This document shows positions 5,036 through 62,634 of a stretch of 64,000 nt of DNA, piece after piece. The notes under the pieces are model-generated. The model saw nothing but the letters and a program-made list of their open reading frames with translations, had not been told where the DNA came from and did not search any database. Each line of letters opens with the position of its first letter. Positions within the stretch are counted from its first letter, which is position 1. The position numbers and the translations under genes are program-made. The stretch covers positions 4,776,501-4,840,500 of the forward strand of contig CM040093.1 in NCBI GenBank assembly GCA_022496805.1. The letters run 5' to 3'. This DNA is from Pohlia nutans (taxonomy: Eukaryota; Streptophyta; Bryopsida; Bryales; Mniaceae).

Positions 5036-5622
5036 TTAACCCCTAAACGTACCAAGGTGTCCCTGGAATCGACAATTTGAGAAAAATCATCATAAACTAC
5101 TATTTAGAAGAATATTTTGGAATTGATATACAAATGAAAGTTCTAGATTTTGAATTTTAGATTCCATATGTACAGTTCGATTCATAATACTATCACTAAT
5201 ATTTAATTATAAAATTTGAAAGTTAAAATTTAAAATTCCTTCTAAATTCGATTACAAACAAAATTTTGATATTTTTTGAGTAAAATTTGTTGGAATGAAT
5301 TTGAAATGAGATACTCTTAAACGTGGTCATTCTTTGAAATTTTTGTGTTTCTTAAACCTATGACCTCATTTTTGCAAGGCCACTTTTGAACTACAGTCAA
5401 TGCAATTTTGGCTTGGTCAACAACTTGACATACTTCTACATTTGTAATTTTAGAAAAATATGTAATCAAGTATGACTAAATCCAACCGTTAGATAAGACA
5501 ACAACTTGGTGAAGAATCTCCAAAAAATTGGATGACTTTCATCTAAGAATTGATGAGAACGTGAGAAGGGTTTGAATCTGTTAGTCGTCCACTTTCTGGA
5601 CGCTCTTTCGTTTAGGGGTTAA
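5036..5622 (-). mobile_element. TTAA MITE family IV, copy a
   Basis: A 587-bp element; the second copy (8600-9185, inverted) is 586 bp. The right end carries a perfect 17-nt palindrome CGTCCA, CTTTC, TGGACG (5586-5602) exactly 16 nt from the TTAA. It shares its right TTAA (5619-5622) with the next element. It is non-coding. Confidence 0.92.
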
Positions 5623-6338
5623 CCCCTAAACGCCGCCTAGACCAAAAAATGGCTTATAAATGAAGTCGTCTGTTCAATTCCAACTGCTACGTGGATGATT
5701 TCTATCCAATTCTTTATGTGAAAGGCTTTGCTTGGTGATGCCACCCCTTCAAGTTAAATTCAAATCATTCAAGCTATTTTTAGATTTTACATGGGGCCCC
5801 AACTACAAAAAGAGTCGTAAAAATGGTTCACCGTGTAGTGTATTTTGAATGTTTTTGCTTGTTCTACTTAAACTAAATTTAGGCCATGAAAATGAGTTCC
5901 ATTGCATTTGAGCTTAACTAACAAAATGAAGTTTGCCAAGCCTAGTTTGAATTTTTGGAAAAATTTGAAAATTGAGTGTTTATTGTAATTACAAGTTCAG
6001 TAGGTATCATCAAGGTGTAGCAATTTTCTAAATTTAGATACACGGATGATTTTCATCAACTAAACTTTTCTTCATTGTAATTTTCACCTTAGGTAAAAAA
6101 ATCAGAATTCTCTAGTACATTTTGTAATTGATATAGATTTTCTTTACAATCACTTCATAAAACCATAGTAATTTCAAATTTTCACCAAAATTTATGAAAA
6201 ATTCATGATTTGTAGTAGACATGTGACTTCATCTACTTAAAATATAAATTTGAATTATTGTATTATTTTTAGTAGCAAAATTGAGTGTGACAGATAAAAC
6301 ATGATTCCATGGTCATAGGCCCAACCTTTAGGGATTAA
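5619..6338 (+). mobile_element. TTAA MITE family V
   Basis: A 720-bp element from TTAACCCCTAAACGCC to CCTTTAGGGATTAA, with no other copy seen in this window. AGACCA, AAAAA, TGGCTT at 5639-5655 sits 16 nt inside the left end, with two of six arm pairs degraded. It abuts family IV on the left and lies 13 bp from family II on the right. Confidence 0.85.
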
Positions 6339-6351
6339 GTGGTCCCAAGTT

Positions 6352-6904
6352 TTAACCCCTAAAAGCCCGAGGGGTATTGGACAAAACATATATGTGTTAT
6401 AATATGTGCCTTCCATATGTTTGATGAAGTTTGGTTCAATAGACAAAATGTAGGGCATCATCTCTACAAATTATCCATACGGTCAAACTTCCAAAAATAA
6501 CTTTAAATCATTTTTTGATGAATTTAAAAGCATTATCCTTTGAAAATTTGTATAAATTATAATTTTCAATTTTAAAGTTTAAAATTTAGTATGATTGGTT
6601 AAATTGGGTTATGTATAATTGTAAACTTCAAAGAAGAAAAAGAAATGATGGAGGGAACATCACTACTTTCCCCAAATACGGTAGTAAATTTTATAACACT
6701 AAGACAATGTTGAGGTGATTCACTTTGGAAAATTCTCCGGGGTGAAGTTTAACTCGGATTGCCATAATTCAAATTGTGTTAGAAAGTAGACTTGATGTAA
6801 TATTTTAAAATATTTTTTATTTTTTCAATTTTTTTAAAATTCCGGGCAGCCCATGAGATTCGGGCAGCGACCAGAAAATGGTCGTTTGAGCATTTAGGGG
6901 TTAA
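6352..6904 (-). mobile_element. TTAA MITE family II, copy a
   Basis: A 553-bp element starting TTAACCCCTAAAAGCCCG and ending CATTTAGGGGTTAA. The right palindrome CGACCA, GAAAA, TGGTCG (6868-6884) is perfect and 16 nt from the TTAA. It contains the uninterrupted TTAA that is the empty site for the insertion at 4031-4838. Confidence 0.93.
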
Positions 6905-7520: not shown

Positions 7521-7529
7521 CGCCCCCAC

Positions 7530-8054: not shown

Positions 8055-8603
8055 TTAACCCCTAAAAGCCCGAGGGGTATTGGACAAAACATAGATGTGT
8101 TATAATATGTGCCTTCAATATGTTTGATGAAGTTTGGTTCAATAGACAAAATGTAGAGTATCATCTCTACAAATTATCCGTACAGTCAGACTTCCAAAAA
8201 TAACTTTAGATCATTTTTTAATGAATTTAAAAGCATTAACCTTTGAAAATTTGTATAAATTATAATTTTCAATTTTAGAGTTCAAAATTTAGTATGATTG
8301 GTTAAAGTTGGGCTATCTATTGTAAACTTCAAAAAAGCAAAAGAAATGATGGAGGGATCATCATTTCTTTCCCCAAATAGCAAATTTTATAACACTAAGA
8401 CAATGTTGAGGTGATCTACTTAAAAATTTCTCCCGAGTGGAGTTTATCTCGGATTGCCAAAATTCAAATTGGATTGGAAAGTAGACTTGACGTAGTATTT
8501 TAAAATATTTTTTATTTTTTCAAAAAAATATTTTTTTGTTCCGGGTAGGCCGTTAGATTCGGGCAGCGACCAAAAAATGGTCATTTGAGCCCTTAGGGGT
8601 TAA
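8055..8603 (-). mobile_element. TTAA MITE family II, copy b
   Basis: A 549-bp element with intact TTAA ends. It carries a perfect palindrome GACCA, AAAAA, TGGTC (8568-8582), 17 nt from the right TTAA. It shares TTAA 8600-8603 with the family IV copy that follows. Confidence 0.93.
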
Positions 8604-9185
8604 CTCTTAAAGGCCCAACCGACACCTGTGGAGTTGATGGATGATTTTTTTCATCCATATCTCCTTCCTCATGAACTTTTTCACCATGAAACATTTTTTT
8701 AGAGATACTTCATCCAATTGTTCTCCTATCCAATGGTAGGATTTGGTGTTCTTAGAATACATACTTCTTTAAAATTACAAACGTATAAGTATGTGAAATT
8801 TTGACCAAGTCAAAATTGCATTGACTTTAGTTCAAAAGTGGCCATGCAATAATGAGGTCATAGATTTAAGGAACACAAAAATTTCAAAAAATCACCATGT
8901 GGAGAGTATCTCATTTCAAATTCGATTCAACGTCTTTTACTCAAAAATCATTAATATATTTTTTGTAATCAAATTTAGAAGGAATTTTTAATTTTTACTT
9001 TCAAATTTTATAATAAAATATTGGTGATAGCATTGCTGAATCTAACCATACGGATGGAATCTTAAATTCAAAATCTACAACTTTCAGTTGTATATCAATT
9101 CTAAAAGATTCCTCCAAAAAATGCTTTATAATAGTTTTTCTCAAATTGTCAATTCCAAGGACACCTTGTGATCTTCAAGGGTTAA
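8600..9185 (+). mobile_element. TTAA MITE family IV, copy b (inverted)
   Basis: A 586-bp element, the reverse complement of the family at 5036-5622; its right end GGACACCTTGTG...AAGGGTTAA mirrors that copy's left end. A decayed palindrome CGACAC, CTGTG, GAGTTG (8620-8636) lies 16 nt inside the left end. Confidence 0.9.
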
Positions 9186-9262
9186 ATGTTATTTCAATAT
9201 TATATGAATAAGTTATGAATTATTGAAGCTTTGCTAACAATGTTCTCAAGAGTAGTTGTTAT

Positions 9263-11852: not shown

Positions 11853-11855
11853 TAA

Positions 11856-13800: not shown

Positions 13801-15255
13801 TTAACCCTTTGAGGCGCCTGCGTCCACATAGTGAACGACGAACAGATTCAAATTGTTTAAATTCCATTCGAATTGGACAGTTTTCATCCACCAAAATTTC
13901 TCATGGTTCTTGTGCAAGTCAACTATCCTTTGTACAGTTTGGATCTTCAAAATAGGTTATTATGATTTTTGGAAAAACAACACAAGTGGTTTATGTCAAG
14001 TTTCATTCTTAGTTCAAAAAGTGAGACCTTAATCTCTAAAGGACCAGGACCGTATTCTCACAAAAAACCATGAAAAACGCAGCATTTGGAAGTTGCAGAA
14101 GAAATCATATGTTTTTTAGTTTTTTCATCATTTAACCCTAAGATCTAATACCCAACTTGAATTTTCATGTGAGCACAAAATTTGAGAGCAAAATGACCAT
14201 TAGATTCTTAGATTATAAGGATCAAAGTTGCAAAAGAAGATTTTTTGGGGTTCAATCCGGTGACAAATTTGAACTTTAGAAATTAATATCTTTTTTTTGA
14301 ATGGGTTAGAAATTCAATGAATGGCAAGGCCATGTTAACAATTGCGTTAAGTCTTCAAATATAAAATCTTGTAAGAAAAAAGCTCATATTAATTTTTTCA
14401 TAAAACAATTACTAGAAGTGGGTACAAAGTGAAAGGAAAAAGAAAATCATTAATAAGTTTGACATGGAATTGTAAAATGTCAATCTTAACGGTGAGAATG
14501 TTGTACTTGGAAATCTTCACCTAGTGCCTTTTATTTCATTAAAAAATATTGAAAATTGAGTTTAGAAATGAACTTCAAAGTCTTTTTTGTCTAAACTGCC
14601 CAAAAAACAGATCTCATAACTTTTATCCCATTGCTCAAAATGGGTAGATTAAAAGCTTCATTTGTAGATAAAGATCAACCAATCATGAATCAAAAAAGAA
14701 ATTTTGAAAAAGAGTAAAAAATAAAAAAATTCTTGCTGCCCGATCTCGCTTCAAAAACTTCAAATGCTTATAACTTTTGCAATACTTATTGGAATGACAT
14801 GAAACGAAGTGCGACATATAGAGTGTAGTTTTTGGAAGCTACACTAAAATTTTCATTGAAATTTTTAAAAATATGAGTCCCTGGAGGCTGCCCAAAAAGT
14901 GGAACGACCAGAATATAGTCGCTCAAAAATTTAGGGGTTAAAGATGATTTTCAAAATAAGTAGAATCAAATAATGGAAACCATACCATCTCGTAGTGCAT
15001 GTTATTCCAATTTTATTACATTTTTTTTTTAAAAATCCGTTAATTCATGATTTTTAATTGAATTTCAAGAGAAAACCTTGCAAAATTATTTAAAAATATT
15101 AAAAATATATATATGATAAATCCAACTGTACAGATGTGATCTTCATATTGACATTTACAACTTTTCTTTGTACATCAACTGCATTTTTGGTTTTCATTAA
15201 ACATTTTATAACGAATCTTTGAAAACAATGTTGAAGTGGGACGTTAAAGGGTTAA
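13801..15255 (+). mobile_element. TTAA MITE family VI, copy a, split by family VII
   Basis: The left part is 13801-14028 and the right part 14942-15255. Without the insertion it is 546 bp, identical in length to the intact copy at 37473-38018. A palindrome CGTCCA, CATAG, TGAACG (13821-13837, one mismatch) lies exactly 16 nt from the left TTAA. Confidence 0.93.
14029..14941 (-). mobile_element. TTAA MITE family VII (nested)
   Basis: A 913-bp element flanked by TTAA at 14029-14032 and 14938-14941, inserted at the TTAA of GAGACCTTAA in family VI. The intact family VI copy has one TTAA at this point (37704-37707). A palindrome CGACCA, GAATA, TAGTCG (14905-14921, one mismatch) sits 16 nt from the right TTAA. 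It is non-coding. Confidence 0.93.
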
Positions 15256-15748: not shown

Positions 15749-16122
15749 TTAACCCTTAAACGTCAAAGTAAGCCCCATGGGCTTATTTAAAAGAGAATAA
15801 TCAAGAAAAAAAGTAGATTTTCTCAACCAAATCAAGCGTGAATTGGTGCGTTGGAAAGCTACTGAAAAAGTGATCTAGATTGCAAATTTGCGCCTCATTT
15901 GAGAAATTGTGGAATCGTCGGTAAGCAATCAAAGTTATGAAATTGAACAAGTTTTTGAGGTTGGGGCAGCTGAGATGCCACAGTGCTACAGTGCTATAGT
16001 GTTGGCCAACAGTGTCCCGCAGAGCCGTTTTGCATTTTTTTCGTTTTTTTTTTTTTTTCCTCTGAAAATTTAGATGCCTTCCGGGCTGCCCCGGCCAGGC
16101 CCTCTTGACGTTTAAGGGTTAA
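15749..16122 (+). mobile_element. TTAA MITE family VIII, copy a
   Basis: A 374-bp element; a second copy at 24367-24738 is 372 bp. A perfect 17-nt palindrome TAAGCCC, CAT, GGGCTTA (15769-15785) begins 16 nt inside the left TTAA. The right end, CTTGACGTTTAAGGGTTAA, mirrors the left over about 19 nt. Confidence 0.93.
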
Positions 16123-17316
16123 GCTTACATGAAAAGAAAGTTGATTGAAAAGCTTTTTCTATATTGGAATTTTAGGGTTTTGAACTTAAAGTGCCGTAAA
16201 AAATGCAATTTTAACAATTTTGAATAGTAAATTGAGCTAGAAGGTAGAAGATAGTCCCCACATTTTTTTAGTTGGGACAATTTTTATTTGAAATAAGGAA
16301 CTAGCGGTGAAAATTAGCGTTTGACTAAAAAACGACCAAGTGTGGCCGTATTGGGCTTTTTAGATGCTTGGGGGTAAACTCATGTGTATTGGTAAACTTT
16401 TTGGTGCTCCCACATTATAACCTTAAAGAGGTTTGACTGTATTTACAATCCATTTTCTACAACCCCTTTTCTACATTTCCTTTTCTACAATCTCCTTTTA
16501 CTGGTAAAATCTTAAATTAAAGATTACAATACTATTATAGAGGCATCATTTCTATTGTTGAGGAACGATGCTTTACAATAATACTATAGAAAAGGACTCA
16601 AGCTAAAGCAACACAAGAATGTTATAGAGACATGAGGAGGGTGATACTAGAAAGAAAGAAAAAAATCTTCCTCACACATTCGCTGATAAGTGGATGTAAA
16701 TGCTCCAAAATGAGAGAAGGAAGTGAAATGGATGTTGTAAGAGCATGCCCACCAGTGAGGCTAGCCTCAAAATTAGATATTAGCATGACTCAGATGTACA
16801 TTAGGTGTACATGAGAAGACCATTGCATGCATAAAATCTACCCAAAAATTTGACGTACTTGCATTTAGAGGCCTCTTCAATATTATCAACATCTCCCCAT
16901 CACAAGAGATTTACTCTAATTGGTAAAGAATTTAAAAGGCTTGCAAAGGTGACTTGGATGAAAGTCATCCGAGATTATATGAGAAAGTTACAAGGCTTTG
17001 AATCTGTTCGTGATCCAGTTTCTGGACGCTGGGACGTTTAGGGATTAAAGACAAGCCGCATTTTTCATCTACTTTTTAGAGTCAATGGCTCATTCAATGT
17101 TAAGATGTGGATGCTCTAAGAGCATGTCCAACAACATTCTGAAGAGGCCCCGCCCTATGGATAACGGATGAAAACCTTACATGAAATCACTAAGGGCTAT
17201 GTAAATCTCTTAGATATCCAAAGTCGTCAACTCATCATTGAAAGTTAAGTTAAAATGAATAGTAACATGGACTAACACATGTGGTGGCACATGATTGGAT
17301 CATGCAAGATGAAATA
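16123..17316. other. Intergenic with a truncated family IV end
   Basis: About 16950-17046 resembles the palindromic end of family IV (GATCCAGTTTCTGGACG at about 17013-17029, then GACGTTTAGGGATTAA), without its other end. The rest shows no gene. Confidence 0.45.
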
Positions 17317-17674
17317 CTCCCTCTGTCCCACAAAAGACCTCATGGTATCGACTTAAATTTTGTTCCAAAATAAAACCATGATTTCCAAGTGTATTCATTC
17401 ACTACCGGCAATTAAGCTTCGCGCGCGCTTGACAATTGCTTCAGGACATTGCAGACACTCTAGCACCTTAATCCATAGATTTTGATCATGCTAATCTTGG
17501 ATTGTTGTCATGGATTTTAACCTTGTATATACTTTATTGCGGTCAAAATACTCCCTCTATACTCACCTAATCCATGTATTTGCATCACAGTCAACATACT
17601 CTCTCTGTAATCATGGGATTAAGTTTAATCCATGAATTTCACTGAAAACAAGGTCTTTTACAGGATGGAAGGAT
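17317..17674. mobile_element. Stowaway-like (Tc1/mariner) MITE
   Basis: It starts CTCCCTCTGTCCCACAAAAG and ends in a near complement (CTTTTACAGGATGGAAGGAT), flanked by TA on each side. CTCCCTCYGTCC is the classical Stowaway terminus. Two further CTCCCTC-like blocks inside suggest rearrangement or nesting. Confidence 0.7.
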
Positions 17675-21795: not shown

Positions 21796-22027
21796 GGTTG
21801 GTGTATACGTTTAAAAAAATTTATAATAATCTCTCACTCGATATCTACAAGGGACAGAGAGAGCAGCAAAAAGAAAAGACGGGAGGATGAACCGCTCTCC
21901 CGAGCGGGGAGCTGATCTGCGGATTCGCAAATTGTTCGAGACGAGAACAACAGATCAGCCCCAAATACAGTGGAAAAGGGGAGGGGAATCTATTCTATCG
22001 TTTTCTGTTGATTTCCCTGAGCAAATA

Positions 22028-22355
22028 TCAGGATGGCTTGCGCACGCACTGCATCACACCGGAAAAAACCAAAAAGAACATCAATCACCTCATCCATCTC
22101 CAAACCGAAAAACCTCCTAACAAAACCATCCATTTCCAAAACGCAAAACCTCCTCCTAACAACATCGATATCCAAAAAGAAAAAATCCTCCAAACGACGA
22201 CGACGACGACAATAATCTCCACTTACGTTCGAGTATGCAGCAGTGCGGAACTTCTCACTTCCCCCGTGCGGTCGTACGTCCTCAATCACGTAACCGAGCG
22301 GACTCTCGTATTGTATCGAACTCTTCTTCGACTTCTTACCACCTTTGGTCTCCAT
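22028..22355 (-). CDS. Conserved small upstream ORF of SAMDC (spliced)
   Basis: Exon 1 is 22355-22227 (43 codons, starting METKGGKK, core ESPLGYVIEDVRPHGG, ending TAAYSN). GTAAGT follows at 22226. The acceptor GATGCAG ends at 22049 and exon 2 (22048-22028) reads CVRKPS then TGA. The joined 49-residue peptide matches the leader peptide of plant SAMDC mRNAs, including the AAYSNCVRKPS tail. In angiosperms this peptide stalls ribosomes when polyamines are high and so shuts off enzyme synthesis. Reading through the intron would give a long false frame (ending at 21990), which shows the splice is needed. Confidence 0.95.
22049..22226 (-). other. Intron inside the SAMDC upstream ORF
   Basis: 178 nt, GTAAGT...GATGCAG, splitting the leader peptide between its asparagine and the terminal CVRKPS. 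The exact restoration of the conserved peptide supports both splice sites. Confidence 0.93.
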
Positions 22356-22363
22356 TATAACAT
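22355..22363 (-). CDS. Tiny upstream ORF of SAMDC
   Basis: ATG TTA TAA, a two-codon ORF whose last base is the first base of the small ORF's ATG (ATGTTATAATGG). A tiny ORF overlapping the small ORF by one base is the canonical arrangement in plant SAMDC leaders. There it controls how often ribosomes reach the inhibitory peptide when polyamines are low. Confidence 0.92.
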   Translation of the reverse strand: ML

Positions 22364-22372
22364 ACAGATACC

Positions 22373-24366: not shown

Positions 24367-24738
24367 TTAACCCTTAAACGTCAAAAAAGCCCCCTGGGCT
24401 TTTTATAAAGGAATAATTGAGAAAAAAAAAAAATATAGTCTTTATCAACCAAATCAAACGAGGATTGGTGCGTTGGAAAGCTACTGAAAAAGCGATCTAA
24501 ATTCCAAATTTGCGCCTCATTTGGGAGATTGTGGAATCATTGGCAAGCAATCAAAGTTATTAAAATAAACAAGAGTTGAGGTTGGGGCAACTGAGGTCGT
24601 TTCTTGAAAAGTATCACGGTGCTACAGTGCCGCAACAATGGTAGTTAGCAGAACCATTTATTTTATTTTATTTCCCTCCGAAAATTTAGATTCCTTCTGG
24701 ACTGCCCCGCCCAGGCCCTCTTGACGTTTAAGGGTTAT
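24367..24738 (+). mobile_element. TTAA MITE family VIII, copy b
   Basis: A 372-bp element; the right TTAA has become TTAT. A palindrome AAAGCCC, CCT, GGGCTTT (24386-24402) lies 15-16 nt inside the left end. Compared with 15749-16122 the arms differ but remain complementary. Confidence 0.92.
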
Positions 24739-28503: not shown

Positions 28504-29105
28504 TTAAACCCTAAATGCCCAACCATCCGTTTTTTTGAATGATGTTCAAAATCAAACCCCATTTTCTCATTTGTCATGCACTTTTTGCAGTGTGGATTTT
28601 TTACTGTGGATTTTATAGGGAGTTGGCTTTATGCACGTGTGAACCAATTAAACAGGGGATGAATAATTGTGAAATTTCATGCTTCATTTCATATTGCATT
28701 GATTCACCAAAAATTTATGACATCTTAGTTCAAAAGTGCTCTTGAAAAAATCAACTCATAAAATCAAGCAACCAAAAAATCTTCAAAATCACTACACTTA
28801 GAGTATTACATTTCAACCTATTACAACAAATTTCATCCACAAATTGTCAATATTTTATTCATAATCGAATTACAAAATAATTTTAAATTTTAAGTTTCAA
28901 ATTTTATACAAAATATCAGTGATTGCAATCATCGATCTAACCATATGGGTAGAATCTAAAATTCATAATGTACAAATTTTATTCATACATGAAGTTCAAA
29001 ATATCCTTCTTATTTGCATTTTACAATGCATCGTTGCAATTTTCCAATTTTCGTTACAATGCATCGTTGCAATTTTGAAGAGGGTTGTGAGCATTTAGGG
29101 ATTAA
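28504..29105 (+). mobile_element. TTAA MITE family IX, copy a
   Basis: A 602-bp element, related to 33965-34539 and (inverted) 54795-55371. Its right TTAA (29102-29105) is the left TTAA of the adjoining family I element. The palindrome position is decayed. Confidence 0.87.
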
Positions 29106-29908
29106 CCCTTCAGTGCCTAGGTAACCAATAAGTGGTTATTGGGTCACCAATAAATGAAGTGTTGTAAAATATGTGAACCACCTGAGTCCGATGTCTAAAG
29201 TTCAGATGTGTAACTTTTTATTTTGCACATGATGCAATTTTTGTTTTTATTTTGAATCATAATTTTTTAGATATCCAAGTACCTATGTACAAAACACAAA
29301 AATACTGCAAGTACCTAAAAATACATAAAATACTTACAAATACAACACATGGACTATGTGGTATTTCATGTCTTTAGAAGTTTGTTATATTGTATTTATT
29401 TTTTGGATTGAGTTCTCTTGCTTGTGTTCCATTAGTGTATGTATTCCGATCTTGATCAATGTAGCAACTCCTTTCATATTTTAACGTATAAAATTTTGTC
29501 CTAAACCATACATGGATAAGTCACTTTCACTTACAAAATTTACAATAATTATGTGAGTCTGTTCTTGACATAAAAGATTGCAATGGAGAGGTGTTGATAG
29601 ATCATTGCTAAACAACTTTACTTTCATTTTTGAAAATTTAAACCAAATTCTATTTAACTTTGAAGTCACACACCCTCCAAAACCTCATTTTTGAGTGTGC
29701 ATTATACATTTCAAAAACATACTATAATCTTTGAATCCAATGGTCCGATCTTAGCAAGATTTAACCGACATTTGTTTCATTAAACTATGCTTACATTTAT
29801 ATAGTTCAATATTACCAATAGTATTCCCAATTTCAACAGAGAAAGTTTTAAAAAATGACTCCAAAAATTGTAGTTTCTCCAGAACCACCATAGGCACTAA
29901 AAGTTTAA
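29102..29908 (+). mobile_element. TTAA MITE family I, copy d
   Basis: An 807-bp element. The palindrome TAACCA, ATAAG, TGGTTA (29122-29138) is perfect and exactly 16 nt from the left TTAA. It abuts family IX. Confidence 0.93.
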
Positions 29909-30038: not shown

Positions 30039-30963
30039 TTAACCCCTAAAGGACCAGGAGGACACATTGTGTCCACGAATAATTTCATTACTTGAATAAT
30101 TTGTTTGGATTTCATAATTTTGACTCAATGTTAACTAGAGAATTGAAAATGTTCGTTTCAAGAACACAAAAAAACTTCAAGATTTGCAATTACGTTGATT
30201 GATTCATTGGGAAAAAACTAAAACGTCAACGTAGGTGAACTTGGGACATAGTAGTTAGGGCGGTTGATGACTTGGAAGGCGTTTTCACACTTGGACGTCA
30301 CATTCGTTAAAAAAAAAAGTATACAATATGTAAAATATTTGCCATTATTGCATCATTAATACTATATAATAATTACGGAAAATGTTTAAATATATTTAAA
30401 ATGGAATATTTTCAAAATAATTGGAATATTTTCAACATATTTTATATTATTTGGGAATATTTTAGAATATTCCAAATATATATTTGAATTATTTAAAAAA
30501 AAATTGCAATGTAAAAATTAATAACGATCACAAACACCGGCTCAACGAGTCACCAACAAGTCACCTCACCCAAACATAAATCTTTGAGAATCAATCATTG
30601 TTGTTGTATTTAGTTTTAGAACACCATTTTTTGTGGGCACTTAGATATAGTACATCTTTGTATGCTCTTAAACTTTCAAACGCTAATCATGGTTTCTAAA
30701 TTTATGAGAAAGTTTGCAATGAATGACCTGTTGGTTTTATTCAAAATTTTCAAAAATCAACTTATGATCAAACCTTATAATCATGTAATATATACGGTAG
30801 ATTGTTCTGAAAATTAATGTACAGTCTCATGACTAAGTCCTTTATGAACTTCAACGGTGAAGTTTTCTACATGAATACCAATCAAGAGATACAATTGCCT
30901 TTCTGAAAGCATCACGAGAAAGTGATAAAATTTTAGGAATGAGCATGGTCCTTTAGGGGTTAA
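30039..30963 (+). mobile_element. TTAA MITE family X
   Basis: A 925-bp element, TTAACCCCTAAAGGACCAGG to GGTCCTTTAGGGGTTAA, with long matching ends. A perfect palindrome GGACACATTGTGTCC (30060-30074) lies 17 nt from the left TTAA. It is the longest of the TTAA elements here and non-coding. Confidence 0.93.
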
Positions 30964-33964: not shown

Positions 33965-34539
33965 TTAACCTCTAAAGGACCGAGTGTCCATATTTAGGAC
34001 AATGTACAGAAACAATTATAGTTTTCTCATCCGTCATGCACTTTTTGCAGAGTGGATCTTTTACTATATATTTTATGGGAAGTTAGCTTCATGCATGCGA
34101 GATCCAATTAGAAAGAGGATGATTTGTGAATTTTTTATGGCTCATTTCATGTTGTAGTGATTCACCCAAATTTTTGAAGATTTCAGTATAAAAATGCTCT
34201 TGAAAAAGTCAACTCATAAAATTAAGCAACCAAAATATCTCCAAAAATCACTACATTTAGAGTATTACATTTCAACCAATCACAACAAGTTTCATCCACA
34301 AATTGTCAATATCTTATTCATAATCGAATTACAAAAGAATTTGATTTTTAAATTTCAAATTTTATACAAAAATATTGGTGATAGCAATCATAGATTTAAC
34401 CATGTGTATAGAATCAAAAATTCATAATGTACAACCTTTATTCATACATCAAGTTCAAAATATCCCTCTTAGTTGCATTTTATAAGACATCTTTGAAATT
34501 CTCCAAATCTGAAGAGGGGTGAGGACGTTTAGGGGTTAA
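33965..34539 (+). mobile_element. TTAA MITE family IX, copy b
   Basis: A 575-bp element. The 17-nt palindrome TGTCC, ATATTTA, GGACA (33985-34001) is exactly 16 nt from the left TTAA. A separate family IX end fragment lies at about 34570-34686. Confidence 0.92.
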
Positions 34540-34569: not shown

Positions 34570-34686
34570 TCTAGTTTTAAAAAACCACTAAAAAAATCAC
34601 AATGCAAAAAGTGCATGATGGATGACGAAACGAAGTTTGCTTTTGTACATCATGCAAAATATGCATGGTTGGGCAGTTGGGGTTAA
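34570..34686 (-). mobile_element. Family IX end fragment
   Basis: Resembles the family IX palindromic end in inverted orientation (AAAAAGTGCATGATGGATGA ... GGTTGGGCAGTTGGGGTTAA). Only this end is present. Confidence 0.6.
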
Positions 34687-37472: not shown

Positions 37473-38018
37473 TTAACCCTTTGACGCGCGAGCATCTATA
37501 TTCTGGACGCTAGATGATTTCTGACGCGTCCCTTCACCACATATGGTGATGTTTTTCATCCAAGCCAAAATTCTTTTGATTCTTGTGCTAGTTGACTACC
37601 ATTTGTATGGTATGGATCTTCAAAATAAGATATTGTGAATTTTTGAAAAATAACAAAAGTGGTTTATGTCAAGTTTCATTCTTAGTTCAAAAAGTGAGAC
37701 CTTAAACATGATTTCCAAAATAAGTAGAATCAAATAATGGAAACCATACCATCTTGTAGTGCATGTTATTCCGATTTCATTACAATATTTTTAATTTATT
37801 TTTGGTGTTAATTTTGGATTTTAAATTGAATTTCAAGAGAAAACCTTGCAAAATTAATTAAAAATATTAATAATAAATATGAATCCAACCGTACAGATGC
37901 TATCTTCACATTGACATTTATAACTTTTCTTTGTACATCAACTCCATTTTTGTTTTTCATCAAACATTTTATAACAAATCTTTGAAAACACCGTTGAATC
38001 GGGACGTTAAAGGGTTAA
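37473..38018 (+). mobile_element. TTAA MITE family VI, copy b (intact)
   Basis: A 546-bp element that supplies the empty site for the family VII insertion at 14029-14941. The palindrome position (37493-37509) reads CATCTA, TATTC, TGGACG, consistent with CGTCCA having lost two bases by C-to-T type changes. A further AAAGGGTTAA end at 38086-38095 may be a second truncated copy sharing its right TTAA. Confidence 0.93.
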
Positions 38019-49642: not shown

Positions 49643-52518
49643 ATGGCTCCGAAGGCGGATAGCGTAGAAGGTAGGCGTGTGATGAATTTGAGCTGATTTT
49701 TGTTTGGGAAGGATCATTCAGTTTCCAAGTATGAAATCTCCGAAGATGTGCTTGGGACCGTGATTGATGTGGTATTCCGTGGTCTTTGCAGGGGTCATTC
49801 TAGGCTACATAAATCAGGTATGAATCTGGTTCCCAACTCGCAGCCTTCAAAACTTTTAAGTACTGTTTTGATGTTCTTATTCAGCTTGTCATTCACAGGG
49901 AATGCTTGATACAGGGGGAGGATTCCGCTCATGTTGAAATTTTGTTTTGATTTGATTTCCTGGAACTCGTTGATATTTTCGAAAGCAATGTTTCTAATTT
50001 TTTGATATTTCATGCATGTCTGATTGACAGTTTGGGGTAATGGATTTTCATGAGATTTTATTAGAATTTCCCCTGGCACAGTTGAGCTTATTACTTCGTG
50101 GAAAGGACGACTAATGAATTTAGTACCGTACTCTGGAACAATGAATTCTTTTTGGTCAAGAAACAGTTTAGCATTTTTGCTACATTTCCATGGCTTGAAG
50201 AGCAATCCAGGCTCCTTGGATGCTCTTTTCATATTAATATATACACATCTTGACTCCATGAAATCTGAAATTAAAGAAATCTGGCTATAATTCCCTCTTT
50301 TTTTCTTCATAAATCCTTTGTATCAATTATTTAGCCCAAATTTTATGTAGCAATTTAGCTAAAATTAGCAAAAACAAAAATCACTGATCTAGAAGCATGA
50401 ACATGGATGTTGCAGCAAAACAGGCCCCTGAATGCGCAAATGGTGTCCGACGCGTTACAAAGCCATGGCTTCAAAAAGCAGGCGGTGCAGAAGGTGATGG
50501 ACACGCTGGCTGCGAACGGGAAAATCTCGTTCAAAGACTATGGAAAGCAACGAGTCTGTCTGGCCAGTCAGGCGCAGTTTGAAATTCCTGACATGGACGA
50601 ACTCGATGCAATGAAGAAGCAGAATGATCAATTACAGGCAGATGTCGCATCCCTTCGCTCCCATGTAGCCGAGCTCGAAGCAGGTATGTATGTATGTACA
50701 AAACCCCCATTCAAGTTTTTAGCAACATCCTCAAGTCATTCATCTTCTGAAATCGGTTTTTGCGTGGTTCACTTGATCTACGGAATTTATTTACAGAATG
50801 GATCTCCTGTACGAATCACATCAAATAAACAAGTTCACAAGGATTCCTCTTGGATTCCAATATGCCTACAAGGGATTTCATCTTATTGACATTCTCCACT
50901 ATTGTTAGAGCCAAGTTCCATGTGTTTGAGAAGTTGCCCATGGAAGTAGGCACGAGGAGGGGAAAAGTGGAACTTGGGTTTGTCTCATACCTGACCATGA
51001 AGTTGTGCACATTCCATGGACTTGCATAAGGGGAAACATGAACAAATTTGATTGGTTAGGGAGAAGTTGCCATGAAGTCTTGGGTTTGAGAACCCTCCAT
51101 ACTTCATGACAACTTCTCCACCACCTTTTTCTCAAAAGCTCACTTGAAATGTGGAACTTGGTCCCCGAAGTCCCTAAAAACTTGTCTTTTAGTGAGATAC
51201 TTCACCCATGGAAGTTGGCTCTTAGTGTTTCGTCGAACACTTTCAGTCAAAAAACTTGACAGTCTTATGTGTAAGAGAATTATCGATTTTATCCTGTAAG
51301 GCATCCCATGGAACTAGCACCATTTTCAAATATCAGTTGTACCGAGTGTTTTCAAATGTCAACCGTACTGAGTACTAGCTTGGCATAGTCATGAAGCTTC
51401 AGGTACCATGTGTTTTTTAAAACCATTTTGGCAAACTTTGTACAGGAGTGAAGTCCACGGAATCCAACCTTACCATTGAAGCAGTCAGGGAGAAGACAAA
51501 TAAGTTAACCTCAGAGGTACGCTCATCTTGGTATTCAATTTTTTAAGTCGACCAGGAACATGGACTAGAATTTGCGCATCATTTATAAAGCTTGTTTCTT
51601 CTCTGTAGTATTTTCATTGTCATGCAGTTGAGCACGAGCAGCAGATTGAAATAATTTTTTAATGATAATCTTGAAAGTAGCACATGATGGCAGATTATGA
51701 GGGCTCACTTAACCTCATAATGAATGTCCTATACGAGTACTGCAGATGGAAGTCTTGGAAACCAAGGTGGAGGCGTTGCGAGAAGGCAGCGTCTTGGTGA
51801 CACCTGAAGAGCGCCTGGAAGTACAGGCAGCCTATGATCACAAGTTGGGGCTATGGAGGAGGAGGAAGAAAATATATCAGGAATTGTGGGGCATGATCAC
51901 CGAATCAATGACTGAAAACTTGAAAAATCTCAAGGTACTCGACCGACAGACTCCATTTCATTGAATTTATGTTGCATCTTGTTTTGAAATAGTGTCATTC
52001 TCTGTCCAGTTCAGTGATCCTTCAAGCAACTATAGCGAACTAGGGAAGAGAACCCATTCCTGTGGGTTAAAAAGTCACCCGTTTACGCCACGAAACACGT
52101 GACTTGCAAGAAATGAGATGGTTCTAAATCCTATTACAGGCAAAGATGCATCTAGATTCTGTTTCAAGGGAAGTCTAGGCTTGTGATCGGGACCCTACTA
52201 CTTCTAACTCCAGCAATTTATAACTCATTCATACAGTATTCAAATAGTACATATTTAAGTGTTCTGAAATTTCTCAAAAATGGAGACAAGGTCCTACCTT
52301 AGTTTTCAGTCACTTGCCAGTTATCCAGGCGAGACATGGTGCACGTCATTGTGTTTTATGGTGGTTCTTTCACATTATGTACTTTGTTTTGGCGGATAGA
52401 AACTGACCTCAGAAATTCTCTGCAGGAGGAGATTGGTATTGAGACCGATGAAGATGTTGGCTGCAACATCACGGACTACAGCAACTTGGGAGCCAAGAAG
52501 CAGAAAAAGGGATTCTAA
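49643..52518 (+). CDS. HOP2: Homologous-pairing protein 2 (HOP2/TBPIP)
   Basis: Six exons: 49643-49670, 49792-49817, 50416-50683, 51446-51516, 51746-51934 and 52426-52518, all GT-AG, joining to 224 residues (Arabidopsis about 226). It starts MAPKADSVEGVILGYINQ, the plant HOP2 N-terminus. A winged-helix DNA-binding domain covers about 7-75 (NRPLN...HGFKKQAVQKVMDTLA, ISFKDYGKQRV). A leucine-zipper coiled coil covers about 85-150, then WRRRKKIYQELW and EEIGIETDEDVG near the C-terminus, as in TBPIP proteins. With MND1 it stimulates DMC1/RAD51 strand exchange in meiosis and acts in the nucleus. The ATG sits in a good context (ACCATGG). Intron 3 carries a 314-bp MITE (50908-51221). No defect is seen. 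Confidence 0.95.
50908..51221 (+). mobile_element. PIF/Harbinger-like MITE in HOP2 intron 3
   Basis: A 314-bp element flanked by TTA (50905-50907 and 51222-51224) with termini GAGCCAAGTTCCATG and CATGGAAGTTGGCTC. It aligns throughout with 48047-48370. Same orientation as the gene and far from both splice sites. Confidence 0.85.
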
Positions 52519-53528: not shown

Positions 53529-53532
<4 letters not shown>

Positions 53533-53739: not shown

Positions 53740-53751
53740 CTCCCATCAAGA

Positions 53752-54766: not shown

Positions 54767-55478
54767 TAAGGTAGACACACACATTACCATCCATTTAACC
54801 CCTAAACGTCCTCACCTATGTCCAGTTTAGGCAGTTTTGCAAAGATGCATTATAAAATGCAATTAATATGAATATTTAGAACTTGATGTATGAATAAAAG
54901 TTATACATTTTTAATTTTAGATTCTATCTATACAGTTAGATCTATGACTACTATCACTAATCTTTTTTTATAAATTTTGAAACATAAAATAAAAAATTAC
55001 TTTGTAATTCAATTACGAATAAGATATTGACAATATGTGGATGAAATTTGTTGTGATGGGTTATAATGTAGTACTTTAGGTGTAGTGATTTTTGGAGATT
55101 TTTTGGATGCTTGATTTCAATAGTTTTTTTTTTCATGAACACTTTTAGACCAAGATCTTCAAGATTTTCGGTGAAACACTACAACACAAAATGAGGCATA
55201 ATTTTTTCAAAAATTATTTCCTTTTCGATCGGATCACACATACATGAAGTTAACTTCCCATAAAAAATTCAGTAAATAAATCACACCACAAAAAGTGCAT
55301 GACGGATGAGAAAATACGGATGAAATCTGTACATCAAGCCAAAAACGCCTGCTTGGGCAGTTAGGGGTTAACAATTCCACCTTCATGTATGCCCTCTTGT
55401 ATTTGTGTTCTAGAATGTACACCACTAGTACATGAGGACGGAATTGAGTGTTGGGTGGTAATAAATATGTTTACTTTA
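54767..55478. mobile_element. Small TIR MITE split by a family IX insertion
   Basis: The parts 54767-54794 and 55372-55478 belong to a roughly 135-bp MITE with termini TAAGGTAGACACAC...GTTTACTTTA. The related intact copy is 55765-55903 (inverted). The family IX element sits at CCATCCATTTAA; the intact copy reads CCATCCATTTGACAATT there, so the target was TTAA with one later difference in the relative. Confidence 0.75.
54795..55371 (-). mobile_element. TTAA MITE family IX, copy c (nested, inverted)
   Basis: A 577-bp element with intact TTAA on both sides, opposite in orientation to 28504-29105 and 33965-34539. The right-end palindrome position holds CAAGCC, AAAAA, CGCCTG (55335-55351), four of six pairs intact, 16 nt from the TTAA. 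Confidence 0.92.
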
Positions 55479-56805: not shown

Positions 56806-59800
56806 TTATGCCTTAGAATCGGAATTCTTCTTCTCCTCGGTAGTTGGAGGCTCTACATTTACACTAACCCTAGTGTCCGAGTTATGCTTTCTCTTTTCTT
56901 CTTCTTCTTCTTTCTTTTTCTTTTCTTCTTCTTCTTTTTTCTTCTCTTCTTCTAAGAAGACATCTTCTTCGTCAAATTTGCGGGCCATCAACAAGGCCTC
57001 AAATTTGGCCTCTAAATCTGCTCCAAGGCCACATTTCTTCACATTTAGTTCTCTCATTTTCTTTTTGGCTAAAAGTCCAGTGTATATTACTTGGCCCCCT
57101 GCAGCCCCAATGCCTGGATTGGCTGAAATATCAAGTTGTACAAGCTCCGATTGCGGTAAATGAAGCAATTTTGCTAATGCTTCCACACCTTCTATGGTAA
57201 ACCCGGTTCCGGACATTCTCAATCTGTGCATTGAAATTCCACAAAATGTCATACCCTTGACCTCCTAAAGGTCCCCAATTTTCACCCCAAAAATAGACAC
57301 CAGTGCAATTCCAACCCAAGAAATGAGATCCGCAAAAATTCACTGTTGAATAGTGTTTATATCTGCAATGCTTAGGGCTGTGCAGAATTGACTGTCTAGC
57401 TTACAAGATTATAATGTTCAAATTTTGCGTTCAAATTTTTATGGGGGGCCACTTTGACGCCCCTTGGGTCTTTAGAGATTAAGGTAGAAATACAATAGAC
57501 CGAGGAAAATAAGAAGTTTTGCATATTAGAAATGGGAGTTATCGCAAGGGCTTATTTTTCATAGAGAGAGATGGAAAAATCAGGAAGAGGCAATCTCATT
57601 CCATATTATTATTCCAAGTAAATAATTTTATACAAATTTTCAAAGGTGGAAAGTTTGTAAAACCCTGAAACTATTTGTTGGACTCTTCAATTTTGATAGA
57701 CAATTTTGTGGAAGGAATCACCCAAAACCGGGAGGCCATTTTGCCCATGAACTGTGCCTATCCAATTCCCTCATTAGCTCAATTTCAAAAAATATCAAAT
57801 CTTGCACCTAGAATCGTCACAGTTGTTAGACATTCTCAGAAATGAGTAAAATTTTAGATTGTGGGGTCTTTACAATTTTCCGTATTTCTACTTTAGGTCG
57901 GTTTCAACATTAAGTATGTTAAAATAGTTTAACCCCTAAAAGAGCAAGAAGCCCAAATTAGGCCTCATGTTTTTTTTTAGAAATTTTGAGTATCCTATGT
58001 AGGCTTCTTTTTTTATCAAATTTTATTTGTTGTCTGACCAACACATGCAATGTTCTTCACTGATTTCAGTGATATAAATTCAATCTCAACTGAATTATAT
58101 GTTTCACAATATGATCAATTGAATTTTCATTTTAAAACCATGAATCCTTGGTCCTTTAGGGTTTAATTTTGAAATTCATGACCCCACAAAATTCTAGTTC
58201 CTAATTTTCAAAAATTTAGAAATTTTCTAATTATGGCATTTCTTATTTCATAAAGAACTAAAAACACTCAAATAATTTTTTTATTATTATTATTATTTGC
58301 ATATTGGTCTACAAATTTTCCAAAATTCAGACATACTTCAAAATTTACTTAATTATGTACATAAATGACCCATACGGAGGGGAACTGTAGTTGGTCGTCG
58401 GGATTGACAAAACAATAATTATAATAAAGAGAAACCCAAGTCAATAGGATTTTTTCTTTTTTCAAAAATAATCTATTTTGTATGGAGTAAAAGAGAATCT
58501 TGGAAGGTATTCGTAAAGAAAATCTCAAAAATAAATAAATAAAATATGCTATTGGGCATGACTTGTTGACCCTGACAGTCGTGTATGATAATTTCCATTA
58601 AATCAATAATCATTTATCATAGAATATATTTTAAATGAATAAAGAAATTAGATTATCAATAGCTTGAATTTTTATATGTATATTAACCTGAATAACTTGA
58701 TTGTCCATCATATAATCAAATATGCGATGACCTCCATAATCTCCTAGATCATTTAGACTTAAATTTAATGATAATAAACTTTTATTGGCTGATAAAGAAT
58801 ACCCAATAGCTCGTGTACCTGAAGAAAAAAAAAAAAAAAAAAACTCATTTAAAAAATGTCATTGTTATATTAAAGTTGTTTGAAAAAAAAAAAGAAAAAA
58901 AAAGCACTTGATTGAATATTCGTTTCAAATTTATTTGTATTTTTTTTTTTTTTTAAATTTAAAAACTATATATAGACAACATTGCTAAATAAAAATATAA
59001 ACATTTAAAAAATGGCATTGAACCCAATTTATATACTTATTCATAAATTAACAAGAAGTTAATAAAATGAAAAAAATATAATATATATTACCTATGTTCC
59101 AAAAGAAAAAGCACCTTTGAAAACTTGAACCAGTGTTTCCATAGGCTTTTTTATTTTGGAACAAAGGGAGTAAGAAAGGAGATGTTTCTTATTAAAATAA
59201 TTTACTTTACCAATCTTTTTTATTTTGTTGTTGCACAGGTTGAGAAACAAAACCACACAATTCTTTGCGTCAAGAAGTTTAGCAAGATATTCACATCCAA
59301 TATCACCAATCATGTTGTGTGAAAGATCCAAATTCACAACCGTAGGATTTTTTGCCATTCCATCCACAAGAATTTTTACCTATGTACAAGAATTATTCAA
59401 GTAAATAATGAAACTAAATCATTCAATTCTTTTAAATAAATAAAATAATGATTTATGTTATGAGAAATTTAGAAATTTTTGGAATGTAAAAAATAAAATA
59501 GGAAAGAGTAATGTTGTACATGATGGTCATTTAATAAATTTGATGATAGATTGAGTTCAGTAAGTGTATACGCGACTGAACAAAAATATGTCATTGACAA
59601 ACAATCAGAGTTTAACATTCCAAAATCTTTAATATCATAATCCATGCATACATTAGGTTTTCCATATTCAATCTTTAATGAACATAAATTCCTATAATAT
59701 ATAATCATGCAGTGTAGAAGTGAATGAAATGAAATGACATTTAATGTAATGTAAACATATAATTTAAACAATGTAATAGAATTGTCAAAATAAATATTAA

Positions 59801-59844
59801 TTATATATATATATATAGATATATATATATAGATATATATATAT

Positions 59845-59886
<42 letters not shown>

Positions 59887-61016
59887 TTTCTTTTATAGTA
59901 TATTTGGATTTATTATTAAAAGAAATGTATGAATGTATCATCAAATCATAAAAATAGATAATTTGAACTTACGACTGAAATCCATCATTTATGATGAGTA
60001 ATTGCATATGAGAGGGAAATTTACGAACATCAATATTATGCACATATGGTGCACTTAACTTCATAATGTCTCGTAAATCCTCTTCCCAATCTTTGGTCAA
60101 TTCATAACTGTAATTGCATAAAAGCACAAATACTAAAATACACATCATTTGATGCTTTAAAACACTTGTAAATTTTATATTTGACTTATTTCAACAATAA
60201 CTTCAAATCATACTGATTTCTAAATAAAAATTTATTTTATTAAGTATAATAAAGCTTCATATTCACAAAGAAGTATCAATTTATAAACCTTTCCAAGAAA
60301 TCATTTAAATTGCGTTCAAAGTACAATTGTTTCCATGAATCTCCATGAGAAGCAATATCGCAATTTCGCCATCTTGGAAGAGATCTTCGTTTCCAATAGC
60401 TCTCTTCTATAATCAACTATATACATAAACCATTAGTCATCAAAAGATGGTAATTTTTTAGAAATGAAATAATCATTGTATTATTTTTGAAATATAAAAA
60501 CTAAATAATATGATACTAAATAGGATAAACATGGGTAGTAATTAATGACCATCATTTCTTGGACAGACTTACATTAACTTGTGAAGTTTTGCTCTTCAAA
60601 TCATTGTTTTGATTTCATATTGTTTTTAAAATAAAATGAGAACTTATATTTGAAAATTATATATATATATATATAAAATATAAAATTAAACCTAAAATGT
60701 AAGTGATTAAGAACGATCACCTCACATCGGAAACAAGTTCTAAAGGCAGATCAATTGGCAACAACCCAACAATACGTTCTCGGATATTTGATGGCATGTC
60801 ACCAAAATAAGGATAATCTTTATAATTTATTGCTTTAATTGGCACAAGCATATCCACTAATGTTGGTTGAAAATAGAATGGAGGTATTGGTACTCCTTCC
60901 TTCCATATTTCTTCTTTCGTCTTTGGTTTTGGAGGTAGAGGTGGCTCTTCTAGCTCACCTTCTTTTTTTCCTTCTTTGCCTTCTTTTTCCTCTTCATTCT
61001 TTGCAACATCCGCCAT
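56806..61016 (-). CDS. Dynein regulatory complex subunit 5 (DRC5/TCTE1)
   Basis: Seven exons (minus): 61016-60726, 60416-60289, 60107-59973, 59691-59520, 59379-59211, 58818-58688 and a last exon from about 57225 to 56806; about 481 residues (human TCTE1 501). After an acidic/lysine-rich N-terminus comes LPLELVSDLI...YWKRR...PRWRNCDIASHGDSWKQ then LYFERNL, the diagnostic TCTE1 block. Leucine-rich repeats (LTELNLSSNLLNDHHV, VVNLDLSHNMIGDIG, LLSLNLSLNDLGDYGG, LVQLDISANPGIG) follow. The end is a Glu/Lys-rich coiled coil. In animals and algae the protein belongs to the nexin-dynein regulatory complex of motile axonemes, so here it should serve sperm flagella. Exons 1-6 join in frame with canonical sites. 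The last junction does not: the LRR frame needs the exon to start at 57225 after AC, while the AG acceptor at 57224 gives a shifted frame. It may be a mutated allele, a missing mini-exon or a sequence error. Confidence 0.85.
57257..57482 (-). mobile_element. TTAA MITE family XIV next to the last DRC5 exon
   Basis: A 226-bp element, TTGACCTCCTAAAGG to CTTTAGAGATTAA, ending only about 32 nt before the last DRC5 exon, i.e. within the branch-point region of that intron. GGGCCA, CTTTG, ACGCCC (57446-57462) lies 16 nt from the right TTAA with four of six pairs. Confidence 0.7.
57929..58166 (+). mobile_element. TTAA MITE family III, copy d, in a DRC5 intron
   Basis: A 238-bp element with intact TTAA ends; AAGCCC, AAATT, AGGCCT (57949-57965) lies 16 nt from the left TTAA. 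It is inside the intron between DRC5 exons 6 and 7, the same intron that carries family XIV. Confidence 0.9.
59805..59886. repeat. (TA)n/GATA microsatellite in a DRC5 intron
   Basis: TA runs interrupted regularly by TAGATA, followed by AGAGAGAG. It lies between DRC5 exons 3 and 4. Confidence 0.9.
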
Positions 61017-61815
61017 TATAACAACAATGACCAAATTACAAGATTTTTTTATTTTAATAAAAGTCAAAAGGCCAATCATTCGATAAATCAATTTTGATAA
61101 TATTTCATTTGAACAAAAATTGCACTTAAAACAATATACATCCAATAATGAAAAAATATATATTTTCAATTCCACATATCTTTAGTGAATTTGATTTTGA
61201 TACAAATGGAATAATTCATATATTGACCTCTTTGTATAATGATCAAATGAATTCCAAAATCATGAGGGTTGGGTTTTAAAAAGATAAAGAAATATCATCA
61301 TCAAACCATACATGAATAGATGATACTCAAAAACTTAGAAGAAGATAAATTCAATGTCTTTACTTGTTAAATTTTAACCAAAATAGCCTATGTTGTTAGA
61401 ATTCAACTCCAAAATTTTAAAATAGGTACATTGAAATTTCATTGCAATGATTTATAATATATTAGTATGCAATGGCATTAAAAAAATTGCTAAAAATTAG
61501 GAATCAAATTGATTTATTACTGTTGCATCTATAGAATAATTTAACTGATTTTTTTTTTTTACATTAGTAAATCTATAAGCATAATAAATAAAAATCTAAG
61601 ACAAAAATTTGCATGCCAATGCATAAGGACATTTTGACATATAAAATCAATGACCTAAACTTATATATTTATATGTTTTTTCACATTCTCCATTGTCCCT
61701 ATCATGCACTAGGAACTTTTGACATAAAAACAATGACCTAAACTTATATGTTCATATATCTCTTCACATTCCCCATTTTCTTTTTGACTCCCAATGAACT
61801 ATCTTTATTTTTCCT
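61017..61815. other. DRC5 upstream region
   Basis: AT-rich leader and promoter region of the minus-strand DRC5 gene. No clear TATA position. No other gene. Confidence 0.4.
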
Positions 61816-62634
61816 TTAACCCCTAACCGTCCCGACATTCATATTTTGGACGTTTTTGGGGGTACATTCACCTTTGAAGAGCTGTAACTTTTGCAAAAAG
61901 TGTCCAAAAATAATGAAATTTTGGAAAAAAAAACCCCCACATGATGTATGGAATGTGTGGTAAAAATTTCAGATCAATCCAAGATGTATTGAATTTTTGG
62001 TGATCATTTGAAAGTAGGTATCTTTTTTTTGGACAAGTTTTGTGCATTTTGATGGCTGCAACTTCGGGGGCTTGTATCTCCTTCATCCCATGTCCGTTTT
62101 CAATAAACACTATTGGGTTGGATTCCCCTTGAAGTCTAGTTATCATGGTAAAATTTTCATGTCAATCCATGTTGTTCTGAATGTCTGAGAGTCATTTTAG
62201 TGCATGGGTCTAGTTTGGACACTTTTTGCTTTTTGGGTCAAATCGGTCACTTTTCGGGCTACTTTTTGACATTGCAAGGCCATTTTAGGGCACTTTAAAT
62301 TTTTTCATGAGTTTTTTTGGTACCAATGTGTTTATATGATGATTTTGAACTACTTTATAGTTGAAAGTTTTTTCATTTGAGTAATTTTGAAAACGAATTT
62401 CACCTCTAACTGTGTTGCTAGGAAAATTTCAGCATCCTTTTTTAACACTAAAACACTACAATCTTGCAATCTATATGGCCAAATGACCTCAAAATTGATC
62501 CACATGATCTACAACATGTATATTACAAGATTGTACGGTTGAGATTTCTATACCTCACTTACATTTAGACATATAACACATCAAAAGCAATGATGATTTT
62601 AAGCCCAAAAAAGCTAGGGACGCTTAGGGGTTAA
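61816..62634 (+). mobile_element. TTAA MITE family XIII
   Basis: An 819-bp element, TTAACCCCTAACCGTC to GACGCTTAGGGGTTAA. CATTCA, TATTT, TGGACG (61836-61852) lies exactly 16 nt from the left TTAA and looks like CGTCCA, TATTT, TGGACG after two transitions. It is non-coding; only one copy in the window. Confidence 0.92.

What the first reader, a model, noticed from the sequence alone, without database searches (positions are those of the whole stretch)
5586..61852. Fixed-position 17-nt palindrome, 16 nt from one TTAA, with covarying arms across families
Measured by eye, one end of almost every TTAA element reads TTAA, 16 nt, then a 17-nt palindrome with 6-nt arms and a 5-nt centre. Arms: TAACCA/TGGTTA (I, 29122), CGACCA/TGGTCG (II, 6868), CGTCCA/TGGACG (IV, 5586), CGACCA/TAGTCG (VII, 14905), TGTCC/GGACA (IX, 33985), GGACACA/TGTGTCC (X, 30060), TAAGCCC/GGGCTTA (VIII, 15769); decayed versions at the same place in III, V, VI, XII, XIII, XIV. 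The arm sequences change but stay complementary, usually around CCA-N5-TGG. From memory, the short-spacer end of insect piggyBac is CCCTAGAAAGATAGTC (16 nt) then TGCGTAAAATTGACGCA (17 nt, palindromic), with the other end differently spaced. Same geometry, same asymmetry. This suggests a dimeric transposase domain reading a palindrome, with each family tuned to its own arm sequence.
Basis: partly seen in the sequence, partly recalled or inferred. Interest (0 to 1): 0.92.

Follow-up and report, generated by a model that had tools for sequence, protein, structure and literature searches.

The report
Moss piggyBac transposons with matched palindromes
In a moss genome, piggyBac-type jumping genes carry at one end a palindrome, usually exactly 16 bases from the TTAA, whose two halves change together from family to family, likely because it is the docking site of a paired domain of each family's own transposase.

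Summary
In 48 window ends chosen by terminal motif alone, dyad symmetry peaks at one centre, transposon bp 25 (3.31 of 6 pairs; best other whole-base centre 2.17; best of 5000 shuffles 2.21). The genome is the moss Pohlia nutans (scaffold lengths match its paper). It encodes many piggyBac transposases (PF13843), and elements carrying them have the same kind of TTAA-CCC ends. In 32 left ends found 5' of transposases by a palindrome-blind rule, symmetry at bp 25 is 3.94 of 6 against 1.40 elsewhere; in 11 of 12 elements with both ends it exceeds the right end. Arms differ among lineages yet stay complementary (189 of 294 pairs; shuffle maximum 140). Genome-wide, CGACCA-N5-TGGTCG and CGTCCA-N5-TGGACG near TTAA occur at 4,088 and 10,962 places against 7 and 40 for reversed controls; of 100 places listed for each, 76 and 70 have spacing exactly 16. 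Nested insertions with empty-site siblings show TTAA duplication. [quoted passage not shown] Binding in moss is inferred. New members of a known kind; the novelty is a natural series of CRD-palindrome pairs in one plant genome.

The parts
4031..4838 (+). family I element, left end at 4031, inserted in a family II copy (about 3632-4989); palindrome 4051-4067 (4 of 6)
   Evidence: flanks joined with one TTAA align with the uninterrupted sibling 6352-6904; the other sibling 8055-8603 reads TTAT there
1742..2549 (-). family I element; left end at 2549, palindrome 2513-2529 (GACCACA T TGTGGTC)
29102..29908 (+). family I element; left end 29102, palindrome 29122-29138 TAACCA/TGGTTA; right end degenerate, so its end is approximate
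6352..6904 (-). family II element; left end 6904, palindrome 6868-6884 CGACCA/TGGTCG
   Evidence: same arms as transposase-linked left end L075
8055..8603 (-). family II element; left end 8603, palindrome 8567-8583 (5 of 6 pairs)
4949..4965 (-). shifted palindrome (4 nt further in) of the family II copy ending at 4989 that holds the nested family I element
5036..5622 (-). family IV element; left end 5622, palindrome 5586-5602 CGTCCA/TGGACG
   Evidence: same arms as transposase-linked L029, whose spacer is 14
8600..9185 (+). family IV element; left end 8600, palindrome 8620-8636 (4 of 6)
5619..6338 (+). family III element; left end 5619, AGACCA-N5-TGGCTT at 5639-5655; this 17-mer is identical in transposase-bearing L011, L012 and L021
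13801..15255 (+). family VI element holding a nested family VII element; palindrome 13821-13837
14029..14941 (-). family VII element nested in VI; left end 14941, palindrome 14905-14921 (CGACCA/TAGTCG on the + strand)
   Evidence: flanks joined with one TTAA match sibling 37473-38018 in 99 of 102 bases
37473..38018 (+). family VI element (uninterrupted sibling); palindrome 37493-37509 (4 of 6)
15749..16122 (+). family VIII element; palindrome 15769-15785 TAAGCC/GGCTTA
24367..24738 (+). family VIII element; arms changed to AAAGCC/GGCTTT around 24394, axis shifted by 1 nt; right TTAA degenerate, so its end is approximate
28504..29105 (+). family IX (beta) element, 1-nt insertion, palindrome decayed (2 of 6)
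33965..34539 (+). family IX (beta) element; palindrome 33985-34001 TGTCC/GGACA
54795..55371 (-). family IX (beta) element; left end 55371, palindrome 55335-55351 CAGGCG/GGCTTG; transposase-linked L067 has CAGGCG/GGCCTG
34651..34667 (-). palindrome CATGCA/TGCATG of the family IX fragment whose left end is 34686 (spacer 15)
30039..30963 (+). family X element; palindrome 30060-30074 GGACACA/TGTGTCC
57929..58166 (+). family XIV short element (pairing by eye); palindrome 57949-57965 (4 of 6)
61816..62634 (+). family XIII element; weak palindrome 61836-61852 (4 of 6)

Best explanation
[quoted passage not shown] Shown here: TTAA duplication on insertion; CCC termini; piggyBac transposases lying between such ends; a palindrome at a usually fixed place, on the left end in most elements examined; complementary change of its arms among lineages; and CRD sequences that differ with the arms. 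Inferred from solved piggyBac and piggyBat complexes: the CRD dimer bends the left end, breaks the symmetry between the two ends and so helps assemble the transpososome. Inferred: both arms must keep the half-site read by that lineage's CRD, so when the CRD drifts both arms change together, and each set of short copies follows the transposase it can recruit.
Against: No binding or transposition was tested. Several transposase left ends are imperfect (alpha AGACCA/TGGCTT 4 of 6; L017 2; L019 2; L069 3), and some lineages place the axis elsewhere (L027 at bp 24.5, delta near 24-24.5, L029 at bp 23). 18 of 50 transposase loci had no left end by my rule. In the subset of 12 elements with both ends, centre 81 scores 3.08, slightly above the 3.00 at bp 25's centre, as related copies share chance symmetry; with the best of three centres the left end is higher in 10 and tied in 2. 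Window right ends average 2.47, above their background of 1.58; 4 of 17 reach 4 of 6. Of the shuffle tests on the beta family, the number of pairs changed on both sides (25 of 500) and of further pair types (64 of 500) is not striking. Double CpG decay could mimic covariation at bp 17/33 and 18/32, though not an A-T to T-A change at 19/31. The CRD-arm correlation partly reflects shared ancestry: among pairs with CRD distance over 0.45, r is 0.22. The moss CRD matches the piggyBat CRD only weakly by sequence (E 0.41).
Confidence: 0.85

Rival explanations
1. The palindrome is only inherited: all families descend from one palindromic ancestor and nothing selects for complementarity now.
For: Short copies of one family share arms by descent; core C21-G29 is nearly constant (37 of 49 distinct ends).
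Against: At the other five pairs two to four Watson-Crick types occur while complementarity stays; slid partners and shuffled columns fall far below; both-sided changes occur inside one homologous family.
Confidence: 0.07
2. The inverted repeat works as a hairpin or cruciform (single-stranded DNA or RNA, for example a small-RNA source), not as a protein dimer site.
For: Perfect arms in many copies could extrude; PMC12324416 discusses such structures for human piggyBac-like elements.
Against: The arms are about 6 bp around an AT-rich centre, tied to the TTAA distance and mostly to one end, as in the solved CRD complexes. I did not count wobble against other mismatches separately.
Confidence: 0.04
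3. The palindrome is a site for a dimeric host factor or part of the transposase promoter.
For: It lies on the end 5' of the transposase gene.
Against: It is kept in short copies without any gene, its place is fixed to the TTAA, and arm sequence differs by transposase lineage.
Confidence: 0.04

Closest known systems
piggyBac of Trichoplusia ni (PMC7351741, passages read)
   Different: T. ni also carries the repeat on the right end behind an insertion; no common one was found on right ends here. The T. ni CRD has a PHD-like fold (PMC8086355, passages read); the moss Cys/His spacing aligns, weakly, with piggyBat.
piggyBat of Myotis lucifugus (PMC11707139 and PMC13405395, passages read)
   Same: palindrome near bp 19-30 on the left end only, read by a dimer of CRDs; comparable CRD Cys/His pattern (weak)
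   Different: piggyBat repeats its palindrome three times on one end; here one place per end stands out, with many different arm sequences in one genome
Inner or subterminal inverted repeats of invertebrate and human piggyBac-like elements (PMC12324416, passages read; a survey recalled as the source was not held)
   Same: short inverted repeats inside one or both ends, differing among elements
   Different: no fixed-axis covarying series in one genome was described in the passages read
CMITEs of corals (PMC2872659, passages read)
   Same: TTAA duplication, CCCTTTAA-like termini in some families, short copies linked to piggyBac
   Different: about 100 bp; no word beginning with palindrom occurs in that paper's main text

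Membership tests
piggyBac superfamily | TTAA target duplicated on insertion | tested here: met
   two nested insertions with uninterrupted siblings
piggyBac superfamily | terminal motif CC[C/T]T (as given in PMC2872659) | tested here: met
   window families and transposase-bearing ends begin CCCC or CCCT after TTAA, apart from decayed copies
piggyBac superfamily | DDE_Tnp_1_7 (PF13843) transposase | tested here: met
   116 scored matches in the genome; 6 of 6 proteins; transposases lie between such ends. The window's own copies are short and I found no transposase in them.
piggyBac superfamily | catalytic aspartate triad | tested here: met
   D236 and D439 in 90% or more, D322 invariant, of 34 sequences; their equivalence to the known triad is recalled
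piggyBac superfamily | C-terminal cysteine-rich zinc domain | tested here: met
   a CxxC...C...C/H...C...H motif was read, by a loose pattern, in 29 of 32 loci with a left end; zinc binding not tested
piggyBac superfamily | seamless excision and hairpin intermediate | not testable with these tools
   needs an assay
T. ni piggyBac type ends | palindrome with axis at bp 25 of the left end | tested here: met
   some lineages are shifted or imperfect
T. ni piggyBac type ends | same palindrome on the right end at a longer spacing | tested here: inconclusive
   no common strong peak in 17 window or 12 transposase right ends out to 119 nt (best 2.53 and 2.67 of 6); a lineage-specific site could be missed
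piggyBat type CRD | C1-like zinc fold | tested here: inconclusive
   weak CRD alignments; whole-model match spans residues 70-570; CRD not folded alone
Kolobok superfamily | its own transposase between TTAA ends | not tested
   no Kolobok query was run; considered because it also duplicates TTAA (recalled; one search gave a listing only)

The most novel reading that the evidence does not exclude
One moss genome holds a natural library of about ten piggyBac lineages in which the CRD and its palindrome have co-evolved as lock and key. The loop between the CRD's first two CxxC pairs (RTNQM, KCSYK, TLTN, KQN or KVQQF types) sets the half-site, which partitions thousands of short copies among non-cross-reacting transposases and gives a readable protein-DNA code for retargeting the left end.
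Probability: 0.5. Interest if true: 0.8.

Novelty: new member of a known kind. Interest (0 to 1): 0.62.

Why it matters
The asymmetry of piggyBac ends was called enigmatic in the structural paper. A series of lineages in one genome that mostly keep the axis but change the arms argues, from sequence alone, that dyad symmetry at bp 25 is under selection, and pairs each palindrome with a CRD. That makes the CRD specificity code testable and could offer orthogonal piggyBac systems for genome engineering. It also shows piggyBac-type transposons to be abundant in a moss genome whose paper reports 23.68% DNA transposons and whose main text does not contain the word piggyBac (listing; its supplement was not seen).

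Tried and rejected
Chance palindromes: rejected by centre scan, shuffles and 842 control TTAA. TTAA as part of the repeat with another target duplication: rejected by the empty sites. Rfam: no match in the window at gathering thresholds. Relatives in viral contigs: alignment A1 could not be searched; A2 found none. Other piggyBac-like ends in print: passages of PMC12324416, PMC2872659 and PMC10954464 gave no left-end sequences long enough to score. CRD against the PDB by sequence alone: inconclusive, ribosomal L32 ranks first. VIA-align lists no row for the CRD by itself.

Not in print, as far as searched: piggyBac with green algae/charophyte, with moss or Pohlia, with Physcomitr, with bryophytes and TIR, with covariation/palindrome. 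A review counts PiggyBac among angiosperm MITE superfamilies and a fern genome paper lists PiggyBac repeats. Most subscription papers are not covered.

Not answered: genome-wide counts of mismatched arms (CGACCA...TGGACG and CGTCCA...TGGTCG) and of unselected TTAACCCCTAA ends; the machine stayed busy.
Full report
What the window is. The sequence is a eukaryotic nuclear stretch, G000:C9:4776501-4840500. Its S-adenosylmethionine decarboxylase has Ceratodon and Physcomitrium as nearest named relatives, and the lengths of contigs C1 (52,153,166) and C17 (30,709,574) equal the maximum scaffold and scaffold N50 of the Pohlia nutans assembly (PMC9247546, passages read). The host is that Antarctic moss.

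The observation. I chose ends by the terminal motif after TTAA only. In 48 such ends symmetry shows a single peak at the base 25 places after TTAA (z 7.0 over 116 half-step centres). In 6-pair terms it is 3.31; no other whole-base centre exceeds 2.17 and no shuffle of 5000 exceeds 2.21. One end per cluster (35) gives 3.20 against 2.31 and 2.29. The 56 ends in 20 fetched loci give 2.25 against 2.16, and clustered (33) 2.18 against 2.21; that set mixes both ends and is not significant once clustered.

Target duplication. Family VII (14029-14941) sits inside a family VI copy. Its flanks joined with one TTAA match the uninterrupted sibling in 99 of 102 bases. Family I (4031-4838) sits inside a family II copy, and the joined flanks align with 6352-6904 across one TTAA; the second sibling, 8055-8603, reads TTAT there. 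So TTAA is the duplicated target.

Left ends. For 50 transposase loci I took the nearest suitable TTAA end 1.7-3.5 kb 5' of the catalytic domain; 32 had one and 18 had none. Mean symmetry at bp 25 is 3.94 of 6 (12 of 32 with at least 5), against 1.40 at other centres (highest 2.16) and a shuffle maximum of 2.19. The 32 include several copies of one lineage. Arms include CATGCA/TGCATG, CAGGCG/GGCCTG, CCAGCC/GGCTGG, CGACCA/TGGTCG, CGGACC/GGTCCG and GGGACA/TGTCCC. Some lineages are imperfect (AGACCA/TGGCTT) or shifted (L029 by 2 nt; L027 and the delta group by up to 1). Some picks are probably wrong (L025, L059).

Right ends. In the 12 two-ended transposase elements the left end beats the right at bp 25 in 11; the exception, L027, is better at bp 24.5 (5 against 3). 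Taking the best of three centres, the left is higher in 10 and tied in 2. In this small set centre 81 scores 3.08 on left ends, slightly above 3.00 at the expected centre, as related copies share chance symmetry. Right ends show no common strong peak out to 119 nt. In the window 17 right ends average 2.47 against a background of 1.58, with 4 of 17 reaching 4 of 6 (families I, VI twice, IX).

Covariation. Among 49 distinct 17-mers from 57 left ends, 189 of 294 cells are Watson-Crick; shuffling the 3' columns gives 118 on average and at most 140 in 2000, and sliding gives 58-89. The transposase-linked subset alone gives 90 of 150 against a maximum of 79. Pairs 17/33 and 19/31 show all four base pairs; C21-G29 is nearly fixed. 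In the beta family, whose flanks align, 12 ends give 83.3% paired against 75.0% shuffled (0 of 500) and a covariation score of 0.245 against 0.138 (3 of 500); both-sided change in 4 of 6 pairs is reached by 25 of 500 shuffles and the number of pair types by 64. CpG decay on both arms could mimic C-G to T-A changes at the outer pairs; it does not explain the A-T to T-A exchange between families II and IV.

Genome-wide. TTAA-N(5-34)-CGACCA-N5-TGGTCG occurs at 4,088 places (7 for the reversed pattern); of the 100 listed, 76 have a spacer of exactly 16, in 75 of 80 distinct loci. CGTCCA-N5-TGGACG gives 10,962 (40 reversed); 70 of 100 listed have spacer 16, in 70 of 83 loci. The lists hold only the first places of C1. 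Places count TTAA-palindrome pairs, so one palindrome can count more than once. Counts for mismatched arms could not be obtained.

Mechanism. In T. ni piggyBac two CRDs form a dimer that binds bp 17-33 of one left end and bends it, making the complex asymmetric. In piggyBat two CRDs of another fold bind a palindrome at bp 19-30 present on the left end only. The moss axis at bp 25 (about 24.5 in some lineages) and the 5' position match these. The moss CRDs differ by lineage, and CRD distance tracks arm distance (Mantel r 0.67; 0.46 given flanks; n 28; 0 of 2000), although among pairs with CRD distance over 0.45 r is 0.22. piggyBat's DNA-reading R543 and E545 fall, if chain numbering is offset by 6, in the loop between the first two CxxC pairs (alignment); that loop differs with the half-site in moss (inference). 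Binding, bending and tuning in moss are therefore inferred.

Novelty. The elements are piggyBac members and CRD palindromes are known. Inner inverted repeats of differing sequence are known in other piggyBac-like elements. New, as far as the held papers show, is a covarying series with one usual axis in one plant genome, tied to the CRDs.

Noticed in passing
window 21993-22547 (-): Conserved S-adenosylmethionine decarboxylase leader peptide (PF08132, E 4e-21) upstream of the decarboxylase ORF 20632-21795.
   Followed up: partly
window 32285-32850: Imperfect repeat array with units between about 44 and 92 nt (CTTGCAAGGCCCCTCCTTGCTCAC...), open in several frames.
   Followed up: no
window 42611-46208 (-): Exons with RCC1-like and ankyrin domains, with a short TTAA element at 45541-45790 just beside the ankyrin frame.
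   Followed up: partly
window 50401-50889 (+): Hop2/TBPIP winged-helix exon (PF07106).
   Followed up: no
window 17300-17650: CTCCCTC-type stretches that look like Stowaway-type MITE termini (by eye, recalled motif).
   Followed up: no
right ends of L009, L011, L017, L023: Right ends of the alpha and delta groups carry CCGTG or CCATG near bp 25 and ACCGTG again near bp 55, perhaps single half-sites for another part of the transposase.
   Followed up: no
L013, L019: Perfect or near-perfect inverted matches anchored on TTAA lie outside the transposase ends; nature not examined.
   Followed up: no
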